From Aureococcus anophagefferens (lineage: Eukaryota > Sar > Pelagophyceae > Pelagomonadales > Pelagomonadaceae), in NCBI RefSeq assembly GCF_000186865.1, contig NW_008705563.1, forward strand, positions 1,662,876-1,726,812: a stretch of 63,937 nt of DNA. Direction: 5' to 3'. The translations under genes were made by a program, and so were the position numbers. Below are positions 11,361-18,916 of this stretch, piece after piece. Within the stretch, counting starts at the first letter, position 1; the number at the start of each line of letters is the position of its first letter. The notes under the pieces are model-generated. The model saw only the letters and a list, made by a program, of their open reading frames with translations. It was not told where the DNA came from and made no database searches.

Positions 11361-12107
11361 ATGCAGATGCGGCAAGCGCTGGTCCTGCTCCTCGCGGCGG
11401 CGCGCGCCGGCGCCTTCGTCGCGCCGCGCGGTCCGCGATCCCCACACCTGCGCGTCGCCTCGAGCCGGAACCCGGTGCCGCCCGAGGACAAGGACGACCG
11501 GCCGCCGTCCATCGACCCCTACGCCCTGCCCGACGCGTCGACGCCCGGCGGCATCGCGGCGCTGCTCGAGGTGACGTTCGTGCGCGCGTGCATGCAGCTG
11601 TCGTCGGGCTACGTGGACACGCTCAAGCTCTTCATCGCGGCTGCCTTCGCCGCCTACGAGCGCGGGTTCACGATCAACGCGCTCGGCCTCGAGCTCTCCA
11701 TGTCCACGACGCAGACGGCGGGGCGGCCCCTCATGGAGGACGAGGTCGAGCTGCGCCAGGTCTGGCTCGGCCTCGTCTTCCTGACGCTCGCGGACGTCGG
11801 CCACCCGTCCGCGGCGGCGCGCAAATGCGGCGAGTCGGTGCCCGAGGACGTCCGCGACAACTTCGAGCGCTTCGTGGGCGACGTCGTCGCCGCGAAGAGG
11901 AACGGCTTCACGCTCGAGACGCTCAAGCTCGAGGACCTCATCCGGCGCTCCGGGGAGGACGCGGAGCCCATGGGCCAGATGGAGCGCGCGATCCTCGGCC
12001 AGTCCATGCGCGTCGTCTACCTCACGCTCACGGTCCGCGACGAGGCCGCGGAGGCGGGCGACCTGCCGCCGCCGCGGAAGCCGGGGCCGAGCATCCCCGG
12101 GGTTTAA
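11361..12107 (+). CDS. Predicted plastid-targeted protein of unknown function
   Basis: A single-exon gene encoding 248 residues. It begins with a bipartite plastid presequence: a hydrophobic signal peptide (MQMRQALVLLLAAARAGA) followed by FVAPRGPR, with Phe at the cleavage site as in red-lineage complex plastids, then an Arg/Ser-rich transit-like stretch. The mature part is a helical protein with two similar-looking ~60-residue blocks, each holding a hydrophobic helix (YVDTLKLFIAAAFAAYERGF and the segment near QVWLGLVFLTLADVG), and ends in a Pro-rich tail. I do not recognise the family. The stop is only 13 nt from the stop of the convergent megasynthase gene, so their 3' UTRs must overlap unless polyadenylation is extremely tight. 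Confidence 0.75.
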   Translation: MQMRQALVLLLAAARAGAFVAPRGPRSPHLRVASSRNPVPPEDKDDRPPSIDPYALPDASTPGGIAALLEVTFVRACMQLSSGYVDTLKLFIAAAFAAYERGFTINALGLELSMSTTQTAGRPLMEDEVELRQVWLGLVFLTLADVGHPSAAARKCGESVPEDVRDNFERFVGDVVAAKRNGFTLETLKLEDLIRRSGEDAEPMGQMERAILGQSMRVVYLTLTVRDEAAEAGDLPPPRKPGPSIPGV

Positions 12108-12120
12108 AGATGCGTCCGCG

Positions 12121-15100
12121 TTACAGCCCCGCGACCCAGCGCGCGACCGCGTCGACGACGGCGTCGAGCGCGGCGTCGTCGGCGAGCATCGTCCAGTGGG
12201 AGCCGGGCACGCGGGCCGCGGTCCGCCTCGGGAGCAGCGACGCCCGGTCGCCGCGGCGCGGGTCCTCCGAGTCCGCGGGGAGCGCGTCGAGCGCCGGCAG
12301 GTCGAGCGGCGCGCGGTCGGACCCGTAGTAAGAGACCAAAAGCTCCGTCGCGGCCGCGAAGTGGGCCGCGGCCGCCGGCGACGCGTCGCCGAGGTCCGCG
12401 GAGGCCACGACGGCGCCGGCGACGGGCGCGTCGAAGAGCGCGACGCCCGCGACGGCGTCCCCCAGGAGCCGCGCGGCCTCGACGGCGACGACGCCGCCGT
12501 AGGACCAGCCGCCGAGGACGAGAGGGGCGTCACCAGCCAAACTCTTCGTTTCGGCCGCGGCGGCGCGCGCGGCCTCGGCGATGGACGCGTGCGCCAGGGC
12601 CGGCGCGCGGCCCGCGACGACGCCGTCGTCGAGGCCGACGACGCGCGCGCCCCGCGAGGCGCCGCGCGAGGGCCCCGTAGCACAGCGCCGTCGCGCCCGC
12701 CGGGTTGAGGAGCACGAGCGTCGGCTTGCCCGCGGACCCGTCGCCGAGCGGCAGGGCCTCGTAGGTCGCCGCGGGCCCCGCGAAGCCCGCGGCGCCCGCG
12801 GCGGCCGCGCGCGCGGCGATCGATCGCGGCGTCGCGTGCTCGAGGAGGTCGCGGACGCCGAGCGTCGCGGACGTCGCCGCCGTGAGGAGCCGCAGGCATT
12901 TCAGCGCCGCGAGCGACGTGCCCCCCAGCACGCGGAAGAAGTGGCCCGTGGCGGCGCAGATCGCGGCCGCGTCGACGCCGGAGGCGGCCGCGAACGCGGC
13001 GACGGCCGCGCGCTCGAGCGCCGTCGCCGGCGGCTCCGGCGGTGCGGCCTCGTCGGCCGCGGCGACGGCCGCGCGGCGGCGCAGGGGCGGGAGCCGCGAC
13101 CGGTCGACCTTGCCGTTGGGCGACAGCGGGAGCGCGGCGACCGCGCCGAACGCGCGGGGGACGGCGTACGTCGGCAGGCTCCTCGCGAGCGTCGCCCGGA
13201 GCGCCGCCTCGAGCTTGGCGTCGAGTCCGCCCGCCGTCCGCAGAACCACGTGGGCCTCGATGGCGCCGCCGCCGTCGACGACGGCGCAGGCCGCCGCGCG
13301 GACCTTCGGGTGCGCCGTCATCGCCGCCTCGATCTCGCCGAGCTCGACCCGAAAGCCCCGGACCTTGGCCTGGCCGTCCTCGCGCCCCAGGATCTCCAGC
13401 ACCCAGTCGCCACCGGACAAACGCATGCGCCCGAGGTCGCCCGTGCGGAAGAAGCGCCGGCCGTCGCGCGCGCGCGTCCGCAGCGACCGCTTGTTTTTCT
13501 CGTCGTCGCCGCGGTAGCCCGTCATCACGCCGACGCCGCCGATGTGGATGACGCCGACGACGTAGGGCGGCAGGGGCTCGAGCGTCGCGTCGCTCAGGAT
13601 ACACATGGTCTGGTTCGACATGGGCCGGCCGTAGGGCCAGCCGCCCCAGCCCGCCGGGAGGCGGCCCGGCCGCTCCACCGGGAACTCGTTGGACCAGATC
13701 GCGGCCTCCGTCGCGCCGCCCATGAGCACGACCCGCACCGTCGGCGACCGGTCGTAGGCCCGCGCCGGCAGGCCCGCGGGGACGACGTCGCCCGAGAGGA
13801 ACGCGACGCGCAGCGCGCGCGGCAGCGTCCCGTCGCGCAGCTCGAGGCCCGACACCGCCAGATCCAGCAGCGCGGGCACGCTGTTCCAGACCGTCACGCC
13901 CGCGCGGTCGCAGAGCCGCAGCCAGGCGTCCGGGTCCGGCGGCGACAGGTCCGCCGCGCGCGGCAGCGCGAGCGCCGCGCCGCAGAGCGCGCTCCCGAAG
14001 ACGTCGAAGACCGAGAGGTCGAACGCGAGGCTCGCCAGACCCAGCAGCACGTCGCGGTCCCCTAAACCCCAGCGCGCGCGCAGGTCCTCGATGGTGTTGA
14101 GCGCGCCGCGGTGGTGGCAGACGACGCCCTTGGGCAGGCCCGTGGAGCCCGACGTGTAGATCACGTACGCCGCGTCTTCGGGTTTCGCGCGCGCGGGCGC
14201 GGCCCGCGCCGCCCCGCGCGGCGGCCAGGCCGTCTCCGGCTCGTCGCGCTCGAAGTCCGTCACCGTCACGGCCGGCGCGCCGCCGAGGTCCGCCGGCGCG
14301 GCGCCGTCGACGAGGCACACGGCCGCGCCGGACCGGGAGACGACGGCGCGGACGCGGCCCGCGGGCCAGAGCGCCGCGTCGCAGGGCACGTAGGCGCCGG
14401 CCTCGAAGAGGATGGCGTGGACGGCGACGACCTGGCGCCAGCCCTTGGCCATGACGACGGCGCCGAGGAAGCCCGGCGCGAGGCCCAGGCCCCGCAGCAG
14501 CGACGCGCACGCGCGGCTCCGGCTGAGCACCTCCGCGAAGGAGAAGCGCCGCAGGGGCCGCGCCTCGTCGTCCTCGACGCAAAAAAGCGCTGTCTGCTCC
14601 GTGTCGCCGTCGCGGCGCTCCAGCGCGTCCTGGAGCAGCGTCCCCGCCGGCGGCTCGGGCGTAGCCGCGTACGGCGGCGCCGCGACCGGGTAGGCGCCGC
14701 TCAGCGCCGCGTCCGCGGCCGCCCAGACGTCGGCGTCCCAGTCGCCGCAGAGGGCCTCCCGGAGGAGGAAGGCGTAGGACCGCTTGAGCTCCGCGGCGAC
14801 GGCGCCGGGGAACGCGCCGTCGACGACGTCCAGGGAGCAGAAGAGCGCGGGCTCGTCGCCCGCGGGCGCGCCCGGCGCGTCCTTGACGGCGTTGACGCAG
14901 GCCGTGTGGGGCACGCGCTCGCTGAAGAAGGTCTCCTCGAAGCACCAGTCCCGCGCCGCGTCCTCGGCCCGCGGCAGCGACTTCTCGACGCCGACGGGCG
15001 TCGTGAAGACGAACGGCGCCGCGGCCTCGAACGTCGACGCGCGCTCCCGGTTCAGGAGCGCCATGACCTCGACGCCGCTCATTGCGCTGTGCTCCAGCGA

Positions 15101-16471
15101 CTCGGCGAGGGACGCGCGCAGCGCACCGCAGGCCTCGCCGAAGGTCCGCGCTTTTCGCAGGTCCACGTCGACGAGCACCGTCGACGAGCAGTTGCCGAGG
15201 CAGCGGAACGCGTCCTCGTCGACGTCGTAGCGCAGGCACAGGAGCACGTTCAGCAGGAAGCGCCGCCCGTTCGCTGACGCGTCCTCGACGTGGCGGCAGA
15301 GCGCGAGGCAGTACGTCGCTAGAAGCGCGACGGGCGCCGTGACGCCGCGCGCGCGGCACGCGGCCCGGCAGTCGGCCCAGGCCGCGCCGGACACCGTCGA
15401 CGTCTGGTTCACGAAGGCCGGCGACGCCGGCGTATGGGCCTCGACGTCGGCGCGCCGCGGGATCGCCGGGCCGCGCCGCGGGAAGGCCGGGTCCTCGAGC
15501 TTCTTCGCCCAGCGCCTTTTCGCGAGAAGATACGCGCGCGACTCGGGAAGCCCGGCGACGAGGCTCCGGCTGTAGTCCCCGAAGGCGAGCGCGGGCGCCG
15601 GCGTCGGGAAGACGACGGCGCCGCCTTTCCGTAAACACTCGTAGGCGCCGGAGAGCTCCGCGCGGAACGTCAGATCGGAAACCGCGTCCATGAGGAAGAG
15701 GCTCATGGCCACGTGGGCCGTCGCGCGGCCGCCGTCGAAGGACGCGCCCACGGCGAAGAGGGGCCACTCGTGGACGGAGCCGATGGCGTCGCCGGCGCCG
15801 CGGAAGTCCTCCCGGAAGGCCCCGCGCGCCGCGCCGACGCGCACCGCGACGCGTCCGGCGAACGTCGCCGCGTCGCGCCAGGACCGCATGGCGCCGTCGG
15901 CGCCGACGTGGGCCCGCAGCGTGCCGTGGCGCGCGACGAGGGCGTCCCAGGCCGATGCGAAGGCGTCCACGTCCAGCCCGCCGGGGAAGTCCCACTCCCA
16001 GTAGATCTGCGGCGACACGGGCGACCCCGTCACCGACGACGCGTGCAACCCCACGAAATGGGCCGCGCCGACGCCGAAGAGCGGGTAGACGTCGTAGTCC
16101 CCGGCGCGCGCCGACCGCAGGAGCGGGAAGGGCCCCCGGGCGTGGGCGATGACCCCCGCGCCGCCGAGCACGTCGAGGTCGACCGCGCCGCCCGCGTCCG
16201 CGTCCGCGGCGCCGGCCGCGCCGCGGACCGTCGCGGCCGCGAAGAGCACGCGGAGGGACAGGGACCGCGGCGCGCCGAGGGCGACGGCCCGGGCGACGGC
16301 GCGCATGGCGCCGAGGGAGTCGAGGCCCAGCGCGAAGACGTTCGCGCGGACGTCGACGTCGCCGGCCGCGCCGCCGACCTCGGCCGCGACCGCGGCCGCG
16401 AGCGCCGCCTCCGTCGGCGTCGCGGCGGCCGGCGACGCGTCGTCGACCGCCGCGGCGTCCTCCTCGTCTTC

Positions 16472-16506
<35 letters not shown>

Positions 16507-18916
16507 GCGCGGCCCGCGGCGCGGCCGCGAGGCGCACGAGCGCGACGGACGGGTCCGAGCCCGCGGACGCCGCGACGGCCTCGAGGACGCGCGCGAAGGC
16601 GCCCAGGAGCGGCCCCGGCGCCGCGGCGCCCTCGGAGACGACCGTGAGCACGTAGGCGCCGCCGGACCGCAGGCACCGCAAAGAGACGTCGACGCCCGCG
16701 CGGTCCTCCAGCGCGCCCCCGGACAGCAGCCCGCCCGCGGACGTCCAGGTGTCCTCGCCCCCCTGGTAGTCGAAGAGGACGTCGAGGGGCCGGCACAGCG
16801 TCGAGGCCGCCGCCTTGGCGGCGACGCGGCGGAGCGCCGCGAGGTTTTCCATGGAAGCGCGCGCGACGTCCCCCATCGTGCCCCGCACGTCGAGGCGCGT
16901 CGGCAGCGAAACCAGCGCGGGCCCGACGCAGTGGCGGCCGAAGTCGCGGCAGGCCACCGTCGCGCCGTAGGCGACGTCGTCGCCGCCGAGCGCGATCGCA
17001 AAGGACGCGTGGACGAGCGCCGCCGGCGGCACCCCGAGCGTCGACGCCGCCGCGTCGACGGCGCCGGCGACGGGGAGCGTCGTCGTTTTGCGCCGGGGTT
17101 TGGCGCGGCGCCGCCGCGGCGGTGCGGCGCCGGCGACCCAGCCGACGGCCGCCTCGTGGGCCGCGACGGCCAGAGGGTCCGCGGCGGCGAGCGCGCTCGC
17201 CGCGTACGCGGCCCAGGCGTCGACCTTCGGCGGCGGCGCGCCGGCGTAGGCCGCGGCGACGTCCTCGAGGAGGAGCTTCGTCGACGCGCCGTCGGTGACG
17301 AGGTGGTGGATCGCGACGACGCAGCGGCCGCCCGCGAGGCCCGCGCGGACGAGCGGCGCGCGGCCGCCGTCGAGCGCGGCCGCGACGCCCGCGGCGCCCG
17401 CCGCCGCGAGGGCCTCCTCGGTGTCGTCCTCGAGGAAGACGGCGTCGGCGTCGACGGCGTCGTGGACCGTCATCGTCGGCGCGGCGTCGCCGCCGAAGTC
17501 GAACGTCGAACGCAACGCGTCGCGGCGCGCGACCACCTCCCGCCACGCGCGGCGCCAGTCGTCCACACGCACGGTTTCCGCGACGTCGAAGCGGAAGACC
17601 TCGACGAAGTGGCGGCCGCCGGGGTCGCTGAGGTGGTGGAAGAGCATGCCGTGCTGCGCCGCGGTCGCGGCGAACGTCTTTTGAGGGGCCGCGACCTCCG
17701 GCGCCGCGAGCCCCTCGACGGCCGCGACGAGGCCCGGCAGCGTGGCGTGGTCGAGGAGGAGCGTCGTCGGCACGGTCCGGCCCAGCGCCTCCTCGAGGGT
17801 CGCCGCGAACTCCGCGCACGCGAGCGAGTCGGGCGCGAGCGCGGCCAGCGGCGGCAGCGCGCCCTCGACGCGGCACGCCCGGGCGAGCGCGGCGCGCACG
17901 GCGCCCTCCACGGTCGTCGTGGCGTCGGCGACGGCGGGGAGGCGCAGGACGTCCGTCGCCGGGCGGCGCGCCGCGGCGACGTCCGACGGGCACTTCGCGG
18001 CCCACGAGACGCACGCGACGGACACCTTGAAGCCCGCCCCGAAGGCGCAGAGCACGACGCGGTCCCCCGCCCGCAGATCGTCGGCGACGTTGGCGAGGAG
18101 GATCGCCGTCGACGCGGCGCCGCAGTTGGCGACGGCGCTCACGTGGCACGGGCACTGGTCCCGCCGCAGGCCCAGCGCCGCCGCGACCTCCTCGAGGATC
18201 CGCGCGTTCGCCTGGTGGAAGACGAATCTGGCCACGCCCGCGACGTCCCAGCCCGCGTCGTCCAGCGCCGCGCGCACGGCCGCGGGCGCGCGCCGCGTCG
18301 CGAGCGCGTAGACGGCCTTGCCGTCCATGCGCAGGGGTCCGCCGGCCGCGAGCGCGAGCGCGTCGCTCGCGTCCGTGGCGGCATACGTCGCGCGGAAGGC
18401 GCCCGTCGGCGACGCCGCGACGACGGCGGCGCCCGCGCCGTCGCCGAAGAGCACCGCCGTCGACCGGTCGCGCGCGTCGCAGCGGCCGCTCAGCGCGTCG
18501 CCGGCGACGACGACGCACCGCGTCGCGGCGCCGCCGCCGACGAGCGCGCGCGCGACGCCCAGCGCGTCGACGAAGCCGCAGCAGGCGCTGCGCACGTCGA
18601 GGCCGCCGCAGCCCGGCGCCGCGAGGCCCCGGGCCGCGAGCGCCGCGCCGACGGCCGCCGCGTCGCCGAAGTCGCTCGCGGGCGTCGTCGTCGCCACGAC
18701 CACGAAGTCGACGCCGCCGCCCGCGGCGCCGGCGGCGCGCGCCGCGGCGTCGACGCAGAGCTCGAGGAAGGACTCGTCGGCGCCGAGGACGAAGCGCTGG
18801 CGGATGCCCGTGCGCGACGCGATCCACGCATCGGACGTGTCCAGCGTCTGTGCGAGGTCGTCGTTCGTGACGCAGGTCGCCGGGAGCGCCGCGGCGACGC
18901 TGACGATGGCCGCCAT
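12121..18916 (-). CDS. KAS III-NRPS megasynthase: KSIII-ACP-C-PCP-Cy-A-PCP-TE
   Basis: An intronless ~2,264-residue megasynthase. Residues ~1-310 are a FabH-like ketoacyl-ACP synthase III with an intact triad: C112 (ACCGF), H234 (FHQANAR) and N264 (ANCGAAS). Then come an ACP (PDSL, S364), a condensation domain with HHLVTDG (H537-G543), a poly-Asp/Glu linker (~805-820), a carrier domain (GLDSLGAM, ~865), and a heterocyclization-type domain (~905-1370; SLFLMDAVS near 1075). Next are an adenylation domain (YTSGSTGLPKG ~1588, PLSPNGKVDR ~1933), a carrier (LGGTSLAAL ~1996) and a thioesterase (GGWSYGG ~2138, GSHW). Pocket residues resemble the cysteine code. The start at 18916 matches the FabH N terminus; an upstream TTG was rejected. 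One extra G in the GGGG run at 12650-12653 breaks the frame before the thioesterase. Likely product: an acylated thiazoline-type compound. Confidence 0.9.

What the first reader, a model, noticed from the sequence alone, without database searches (positions are those of the whole stretch)
12121..18916. KAS III-primed NRPS: KSIII-ACP-C-PCP-Cy-A-PCP-TE in one algal gene
A FabH-type synthase with an intact Cys112-His234-Asn264 triad is fused in one frame to an ACP and a nonribosomal peptide assembly line. KAS III enzymes are normally free-standing. Here the domain would make or transfer an acyl (possibly beta-ketoacyl) starter onto the adjacent ACP. The condensation domain would then pass it downstream. 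I do not know a described eukaryotic enzyme with this order.
Basis: partly seen in the sequence, partly recalled or inferred. Interest (0 to 1): 0.92.

Follow-up and report, generated by a model that had tools for sequence, protein, structure and literature searches.

The report
Chloroplast-type starter enzyme fused to NRPS
A marine alga, likely the brown-tide species Aureococcus, encodes one giant enzyme in which a fatty-acid-starting enzyme of chloroplast/cyanobacterial type is joined to a peptide-building assembly line, so it would likely begin a small, probably cysteine-containing product with an acyl unit it makes itself; related algae share the arrangement, and no bacterium sampled here showed it.

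Summary
Minus-strand 12121-18916 encodes KASIII-ACP-C-PCP-Cy-A-PCP-TE. One frame runs from KASIII into the TE; the rest of the TE is in the next frame. The KASIII triad Cys112-His234-Asn264 is intact. The same full order occurs in Chrysophaeum taylorii (2167 aa) and an unnamed 2340-aa protein; three partial relatives agree as far as they go. Searches of a 5.8-billion-protein set and 119 bacterial genomes showed no other KASIII joined to condensation domains, but the protein searches are capped and each region search missed known family members. Trees place the KASIII with cyanobacterial/plastid FabH; the nearest named adenylation domains outside the family are bacterial.

One correction adds interest. 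The "Cy" domain has the heterocyclization fold but lost the Thr-Asp ring-closing pair (Thr to Leu, Asp to Asn, 5 of 5) and the first Asp of DxxxxD (to Ser, 6 of 6). It is predicted to join without closing a ring.

Most likely KASIII makes a short beta-ketoacyl group on its own ACP, C passes it to PCP1, the Cy-like domain to PCP2 (amino acid probably cysteine), and TE releases it. No step has been assayed. New variant of a known kind.

The parts
18002..18916 (-). KAS III (FabH-type) domain, residues 1-305; Cys112, His234, Asn264; Trp31, Arg35, Arg151, Phe83 conserved
   Evidence: Pfam PF08545/PF08541; PDB FabH matches; alignment with E. coli FabH; 6 of 6 invariant; KASIII-family structures at ranks 1-50
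17717..17896 (-). ACP, Pfam match residues 341-400, phosphopantetheine Ser364 (DSL)
   Evidence: PF00550 28.7 bits alone; Ser364 in 6 of 6; modelled at low confidence
16547..17689 (-). Condensation domain C1, residues ~410-790 (end estimated), HHLVTDG at 537-543; Pfam matches the N-terminal lobe only (412-564)
   Evidence: PF00668; PvdL C domains in PDB; H537, H538, D542 in 6 of 6
16214..16405 (-). PCP1, residues 838-901, Ser867; no A domain precedes it in the protein
   Evidence: PF00550 28.4 bits alone; Ser867 in 6 of 6
14597..16099 (-). Cy-derived condensation domain, residues 940-1440: S1072LFLMD1077AVS, Leu for the catalytic Thr (LLNVLLCLRY, 1221-1230), Asn for the catalytic Asp (LGNCSST, 1240-1246)
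   Evidence: PDB matches all from Cy-containing synthetases; motif table; Cy domains rank first by fold; Pfam PF00668 alone 30.0 bits, just under the cut-off 30.6
13109..14560 (-). Adenylation domain, residues 1453-1936, signature DLFNFSMIWK (nearest to the cysteine type)
   Evidence: PF00501 and PF13193; code table, corrected
12809..13003 (-). PCP2, residues 1972-2036, Ser in GGTSL
   Evidence: PF00550 31.5 bits alone; Ser in 3 of 3 members that reach it
12650..12727 (-). TE, N-terminal piece, in the frame of the main ORF (residues 2064-2089)
   Evidence: KPTLVLLNPAGATALCYG aligns with the TE of P0005 and P0124
12121..12645 (-). TE, rest, in the next frame: GGWSYGG nucleophile, LFDAP, SHWTML; stop at 12121
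   Evidence: PF00975 29.8 bits, cut-off 26.4

Best explanation
This is a one-gene assembly line of pelagophyte algae in which a FabH-type (KAS III) domain that groups with cyanobacterial/plastid FabH, together with its adjacent ACP, is predicted to make a short beta-ketoacyl starter for a peptide synthetase whose heterocyclization-type domain has lost its ring-closing residues and would therefore join without cyclizing. Step by step (all chemistry inferred): KASIII takes an acyl-CoA (Trp31, Arg35 and Arg151 at CoA-site positions of E. coli FabH; Phe83 at Phe87, which suggests a short acyl; these roles are recalled), condenses it with malonyl on ACP Ser364 and leaves a beta-ketoacyl-ACP. Malonyl must come from a partner enzyme, since no AT domain is present. 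C1 passes the acyl to an aminoacyl group on PCP1. As the protein has one A domain and two PCPs, that A domain (nearest to the cysteine type) most likely loads both. The Cy-derived domain joins this to the aminoacyl-PCP2 with the side chain left open, and TE releases the product. No leader precedes KASIII, so the enzyme would work in the cytosol, apart from the plastid-type FabH that the same genome keeps. Shown: order, residues, conservation, tree position. Inferred: every reaction, the substrates and the product.
For: Domains and residues. Same full order in P0005 (C. taylorii, 2167 aa) and P0124 (2340 aa); P0123, P0094 and P0053 agree as far as they reach. The C. taylorii gene set was made with RNA-seq and protein-homology evidence (PMC10366177, section 6). 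Tree: six fused KASIIIs form one clade (100/90; 99/94), on the side of 22 of 26 rows from the cyanobacterial phylum and the own plastid-type FabH against the other bacteria (98/90). Cy changes in 5 of 5 and 6 of 6 members against 0 of 13 relatives outside the family (10 from named bacteria, 3 unnamed) and 0 of 2 solved domains. Precedent for a Cy domain with both residues changed that joins without a ring: AzsO (PMC10445470, abstract and passages). Leader absent by eye in 6 of 6, an N-terminal extension present in L001. Five PPTase-type matches in the genome.
Against: No transcript, protein or product of this gene was seen. Nothing here shows what loads malonyl on the ACP, or which amino acid PCP1 carries. 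The A code departs from the common cysteine codes at two positions (Phe and Met for Leu and Leu), and such codes can mislead: AzsO was predicted cysteine but uses serine. Loss of the first Asp of DxxxxD could also impair condensation; in AzsO both Asp residues were needed. The Cy-type region alone is just under the Pfam cut-off. The TE is split between two frames in this assembly. Some family rows of the trees have skewed composition, and only one algal plastid-type FabH was available.
Confidence: 0.48

Rival explanations
1. KASIII only transfers an acyl group from CoA to the ACP (or to another acceptor) and makes no carbon-carbon bond; the NRPS then simply N-acylates.
For: No malonyl-loading AT domain in the protein. 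KASIII-fold acyltransferases exist among polyketide loaders (recalled).
Against: The full Cys-His-Asn triad needed for decarboxylative condensation is invariant in 6 of 6; plain acyl transfer would not need to keep it (recalled).
Confidence: 0.22
2. The Cy-derived domain makes an ester or thioester through the side chain of Ser/Cys, as AzsO does in azaserine synthesis, rather than an amide.
For: Asp to Asn at the same catalytic position as AzsO, and the catalytic Thr also replaced. AzsO's A domain too was predicted as cysteine type.
Against: AzsO keeps both Asp residues of DxxxxD and has Asn, not Leu, at the Thr position, and all four residues matter there; here the first Asp is Ser and the Thr is Leu.
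Confidence: 0.18
3. The Cy-derived domain is dead, and only acylation at PCP1 or trans-acting steps matter.
For: All three hallmark positions are changed.
Against: The changed motifs are themselves conserved (SLFLMDA in 6 of 6, [LI]GN[CA]SST in 5 of 5), and the Cy-A-PCP-TE order is kept in P0005 and P0124, the two relatives that reach the end, which argues for selection on a function.
Confidence: 0.12
4. An artefact: two neighbouring genes read through in a GC-rich genome, a misassembly, or bacterial contamination.
For: GC-rich DNA gives very long stop-free frames; the TE changes frame.
Against: The same order is predicted in C. taylorii and in P0124, a 2340-aa protein on an 8.1-kb contig; Aureococcus proteins P0003 and P0004 span the same fusion although their models are broken; two of the six neighbouring ORFs scanned are anoctamin and SEP/UBX genes; the family KASIIIs form a clade of their own.
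Confidence: 0.04

Closest known systems
FabH / beta-ketoacyl-ACP synthase III (plastid and bacterial)
   Same: Fold, Cys-His-Asn triad and CoA-site residues; grouped with cyanobacterial and plastid-type FabH
   Different: Not free-standing, no leader, fused to its own ACP and an NRPS
Cysteine-incorporating Cy-A-PCP modules of bacterial NRPSs (BmdB, HMWP2/Irp2, PchE, MbtB-like proteins)
   Same: Cy fold and an A code of nearly the same type; the best-scoring named relatives outside the family are bacterial
   Different: Thr-Asp ring-closing pair and first Asp of DxxxxD lost; A code differs at two positions; starter predicted to be made by KASIII
AzsO, an ester-forming Cy domain (azaserine; PMC10445470, abstract and passages)
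   Same: Catalytic Thr and Asp both replaced, the Asp also by Asn; Cy-A-CP order; A predicted as cysteine type
   Different: AzsO keeps both Asp residues of DxxxxD, has Asn at the Thr position, and no KASIII is described in it
TAS1, fungal NRPS-PKS for tenuazonic acid (recalled; only a search listing seen)
   Same: Eukaryotic synthetase that joins an acetoacetyl unit to one amino acid and holds a ketosynthase domain
   Different: Its KS is of the PKS type, sits at the end and releases the product; it is thought to use ready-made acetoacetyl-CoA (recalled)
Other multidomain KASIII proteins: P0125 (the green alga Pseudoscourfieldia marina) and P0126 (unnamed)
   Same: KASIII fused in large proteins; joined to the NRPS KASIII clade in the tree (100/86; 99/94)
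   Different: Joined to KR/SDR, hexapeptide-repeat and, in P0126, AT-like domains; no C or A domain found by Pfam

Membership tests
FabH / KAS III | ACP_syn_III and ACP_syn_III_C profiles over cut-off | tested here: met
   62.0 and 73.4 bits against 24 and 26.6
FabH / KAS III | Cys-His-Asn catalytic triad | tested here: met
   C112, H234, N264 align with E. coli FabH; 6 of 6 invariant
FabH / KAS III | Condenses acyl-CoA with malonyl-ACP | not testable with these tools
   Needs an enzyme assay
Nonribosomal peptide synthetase | C, A and PCP domains with intact core motifs | tested here: met
   HHLVTDG, SGSTGLPKG and Ser in all three carriers
Functional heterocyclization (Cy) domain | Cy fold and sequence relationship | tested here: met
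Functional heterocyclization (Cy) domain | Catalytic Thr-Asp pair | tested here: not met
   Thr to Leu and Asp to Asn in 5 of 5 members that reach the site; kept in 13 of 13 relatives outside the family and 2 of 2 PDB rows
Functional heterocyclization (Cy) domain | DxxxxD motif | tested here: not met
   First Asp is Ser in 6 of 6; second Asp kept
AzsO-type ester-forming Cy | Asn at both catalytic positions with DxxxxD kept | tested here: not met
   Leu/Asn and SxxxxD (AzsO pattern from PMC10445470)
Cysteine-activating A domain | DLYNLSLIWK-like specificity code | tested here: inconclusive
   DLFNFSMIWK (family DLFN[FM]SM[IV]WK): 8 of 10 positions agree with DLFNLSLIWK, the commonest code of the 54 compared A domains outside the family (5 of 54), 7 of 10 with DLYNLSLIWK. 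The meaning of the codes is recalled; substrate not assayed
Type I thioesterase release domain | Ser-Asp-His in one continuous domain | tested here: inconclusive
   The motifs are present but the domain is split over two frames here; continuous in P0005 and P0124

The most novel reading that the evidence does not exclude
Pelagophyte algae took the chloroplast's fatty-acid-starting enzyme, moved it to the cytosol and welded it to a bacterial-type cysteine module, founding a eukaryote-only class of assembly line that makes its own beta-ketoacyl primer and uses a heterocyclization domain rebuilt as a non-cyclizing joining enzyme, giving a thiol-bearing beta-ketoacyl-cysteine product of unknown ecological role.
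Probability: 0.3. Interest if true: 0.8.

Novelty: new variant of a known kind. Interest (0 to 1): 0.66.

Why it matters
Hybrid acyl-peptide assembly lines usually borrow a ready-made starter through a starter C domain, an acyl ligase or a PKS module (recalled). A built-in KASIII would be a different way to start, and would tie primary fatty-acid chemistry of the plastid type to secondary metabolism in one gene. The Cy-derived domain is a natural set of changes (Leu, Asn, Ser) that bears on what Thr, Asp and the first Asp of DxxxxD each contribute to condensation and to ring closure. The relatives lie in Aureococcus, which forms brown tides, and in Chrysophaeum, which accumulates antibiotics (PMC10366177, abstract); no product of this gene is known to me.

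Tried and rejected
Bacterial contamination: rejected (two eukaryotic-family neighbours; KASIII tree). A functional Cy and a thiazoline product: rejected as the default reading because. A biosynthetic cluster around the gene: six neighbouring ORFs scanned; two match anoctamin and SEP/UBX, one a DUF below cut-off, three nothing. Clustering is also reported as weak in C. taylorii. A viral relative: the one relative found in viral contigs (L087) is a free-standing FabH of 349 aa that groups with Bacillota in the tree. The algal survey PMC4661987 (passages) counts one Aureococcus NRPS, 460 kDa with three C domains; this gene is much smaller. PMC10756674 (passages) gave nothing on NRPSs. KASIII fused to condensation domains in bacteria: none seen, but this absence is soft. 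The protein searches need shared 5-residue words and were capped at about 8000 candidates; one search missed the family member P0053, one search missed P0053 and P0124, and 604 of the 724 hits were not listed. One search kept 80 of at least 591 loci. The genome searches looked at open-frame length only, and Myxococcota were not sampled on purpose. P0127's KASIII falls away from the family on a long branch and was left out. Papers: searches are searches (listings); of the papers I saw only the parts cited, and no supplements. The library is open-licence only, so 'not in print' is not shown.
Full report
What is there. The window is part of contig C3 of a 49-Mb genome; the window itself is about 64-79% GC. 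Its closest named proteins are from Aureococcus anophagefferens: P0003 is given as 100% identical to the Cy-type region where it aligns. On the minus strand a single open frame runs from Met at 18916 to 12533. Pfam, PDB sequence searches and alignment give, in order: KASIII (residues 1-305), ACP (341-400), C (~410-790), PCP1 (838-901), a Cy-type domain (940-1440), A (1453-1936), PCP2 (1972-2036) and the start of a TE (from 2064). The TE continues in the next frame to the stop at 12121. By eye no GT-AG intron fits there; a real frame change in this strain and an assembly error are both possible. TEs of P0005 and P0124 are continuous.

Is it more than chance? Open-frame length is weak evidence here, because the window has stop-free stretches of up to 5361 codons. 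The support is homology: profile matches over curated cut-offs (the Cy-type region taken alone is just under its cut-off, 30.0 against 30.6 bits) and a conserved family.

The family. One search gave 724 proteins, 120 listed. Of those 120, four are listed with a KASIII Pfam domain together with a condensation domain: P0004 (Aureococcus), P0005 (C. taylorii), P0053 (Pelagophyceae CCMP2097, 1286 aa) and P0094 (unnamed). P0003 (Aureococcus) also begins with the KASIII but its deposited model is broken. Restricting the search to residues 1-415 gave six hits, each listed with a condensation domain: P0003, P0004, P0005, P0094 and two more unnamed ones, P0123 and P0124. Searching with P0123 residues 1-420 gave eight: five of this family and three KASIII proteins listed without condensation domains (P0125, P0126, P0127). 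Both region searches missed known members (P0053 in both, P0124), so absence from them is soft. P0005 and P0124 are full-length with the same order; P0123, P0094 and P0053 agree as far as they reach. The C. taylorii gene set was built with RNA-seq and homology evidence, and its paper reports nine NRPS genes; the main text has no word beginning with 'KAS' (PMC10366177, term search and section 6; supplements not seen).

KASIII. Cys112, His234 and Asn264, and Trp31, Arg35, Arg151 and Phe83, are invariant in 6 of 6 and match E. coli FabH positions. That Trp32, Arg36 and Arg151 contact CoA and Phe87 limits acyl length in E. coli is recalled, not taken from a call. The KASIII-ACP model (mean pLDDT 73.0, the ACP part low) matches KASIII-family structures at ranks 1 to 50. 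By eye none of the six proteins has a leader before the domain. The genome also encodes a separate FabH, L001, whose N-terminal extension looks like a plastid leader.

Ancestry. In a tree of 92 KASIII sequences the six fused domains form one clade (100/90). They join P0125 and P0126 (100/86), then a Cyanobium FabH and the own plastid-type FabH (100/99); P0127 falls elsewhere on a long branch. With 26 rows from the cyanobacterial phylum (62 rows in all, P0127 left out), a split supported at 98/90 puts the fused domains on the side of 22 of those 26 and the plastid-type FabH. The other 4 of the 26 fall with the remaining bacteria. Some family rows have skewed composition and only one algal plastid-type FabH was available, so plastid origin and direct cyanobacterial transfer are not separated. 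By contrast, the best-scoring A domains outside the family are bacterial where an organism is named.

How unusual is the fusion? The 80 bacterial loci kept (of at least 591) each gave a KASIII ORF of at most 480 aa. In 59 genomes of the cyanobacterial phylum (59 of 59 with a match) and 60 genomes of the phylum of a Thermoleophilia MAG, presumably Actinomycetota (48 of 60 with a match), no listed match lies in an open frame longer than 830 and 919 aa respectively, too short for this architecture.

Substrate. The A-domain signature is DLFNFSMIWK (DLFN[FM]SM[IV]WK in the family, which corrects one position). It agrees at 8 of 10 positions with DLFNLSLIWK, the commonest code among the 54 compared A domains outside the family (5 of 54), and at 7 of 10 with DLYNLSLIWK; both are cysteine codes as I recall. 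Cysteine is therefore likely but not firm, and serine is possible, as in AzsO. One A domain faces two PCPs, so loading of both by the same A is the simplest scheme, as recalled for the yersiniabactin synthetase.

Mechanism and its limits. The chain start, C transfer, Cy-type joining and TE release are inferred from order and residues. The supply of malonyl is unexplained: no AT is fused. Five PPTase-type matches exist in the genome.

Verdict. Its reading is right in outline and wrong about cyclization. It is a conserved algal variant of hybrid acyl-peptide assembly lines, not a wholly new kind of system.

Noticed in passing
P0125 (Pseudoscourfieldia marina, 1109 aa) and P0126 (unnamed, 1191 aa): Other multidomain proteins with KASIII: KASIII-KR-hexapeptide repeat, and hexapeptide repeat-(sub-threshold carrier)-KASIII-SDR-(sub-threshold AT); joined to the NRPS KASIII clade.
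   Followed up: partly
P0127 (unnamed, 1169 aa): Listed Pfam domains combine dehydrogenase/transketolase (PF00676, PF02779, PF02780), PF00364 (lipoyl-type, recalled) and KASIII, as if a keto-acid dehydrogenase fed acyl-CoA straight to KASIII.
   Followed up: no
G000:C2:1355752-1363938: A second large NRPS (4378-aa open frame, four condensation matches), probably the 460-kDa Aureococcus NRPS of PMC4661987.
   Followed up: no
G000:C37:160768-162039 and G000:C41:114305-115639: Strong condensation-domain matches (E 5e-55 and 3e-52) with 10 and 20 in-frame stops: decayed genes, introns or another code.
   Followed up: no
G000:C39:251941-252405: A further condensation match in a 1992-aa open frame, not examined.
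   Followed up: no
window 11361-12107 (+): Tail-to-tail neighbour, 13 bases between its end and the TE stop; 248 aa with a leader that by eye looks plastid-directed and only a sub-threshold DUF7876 match.
   Followed up: partly
P0003 and P0004: Deposited Aureococcus models of this gene are broken and named 'acyl carrier protein' and 'methyltransferase'.
   Followed up: partly
window 12121-12727: The thioesterase changes reading frame once in this assembly; relatives have a continuous one.
   Followed up: partly
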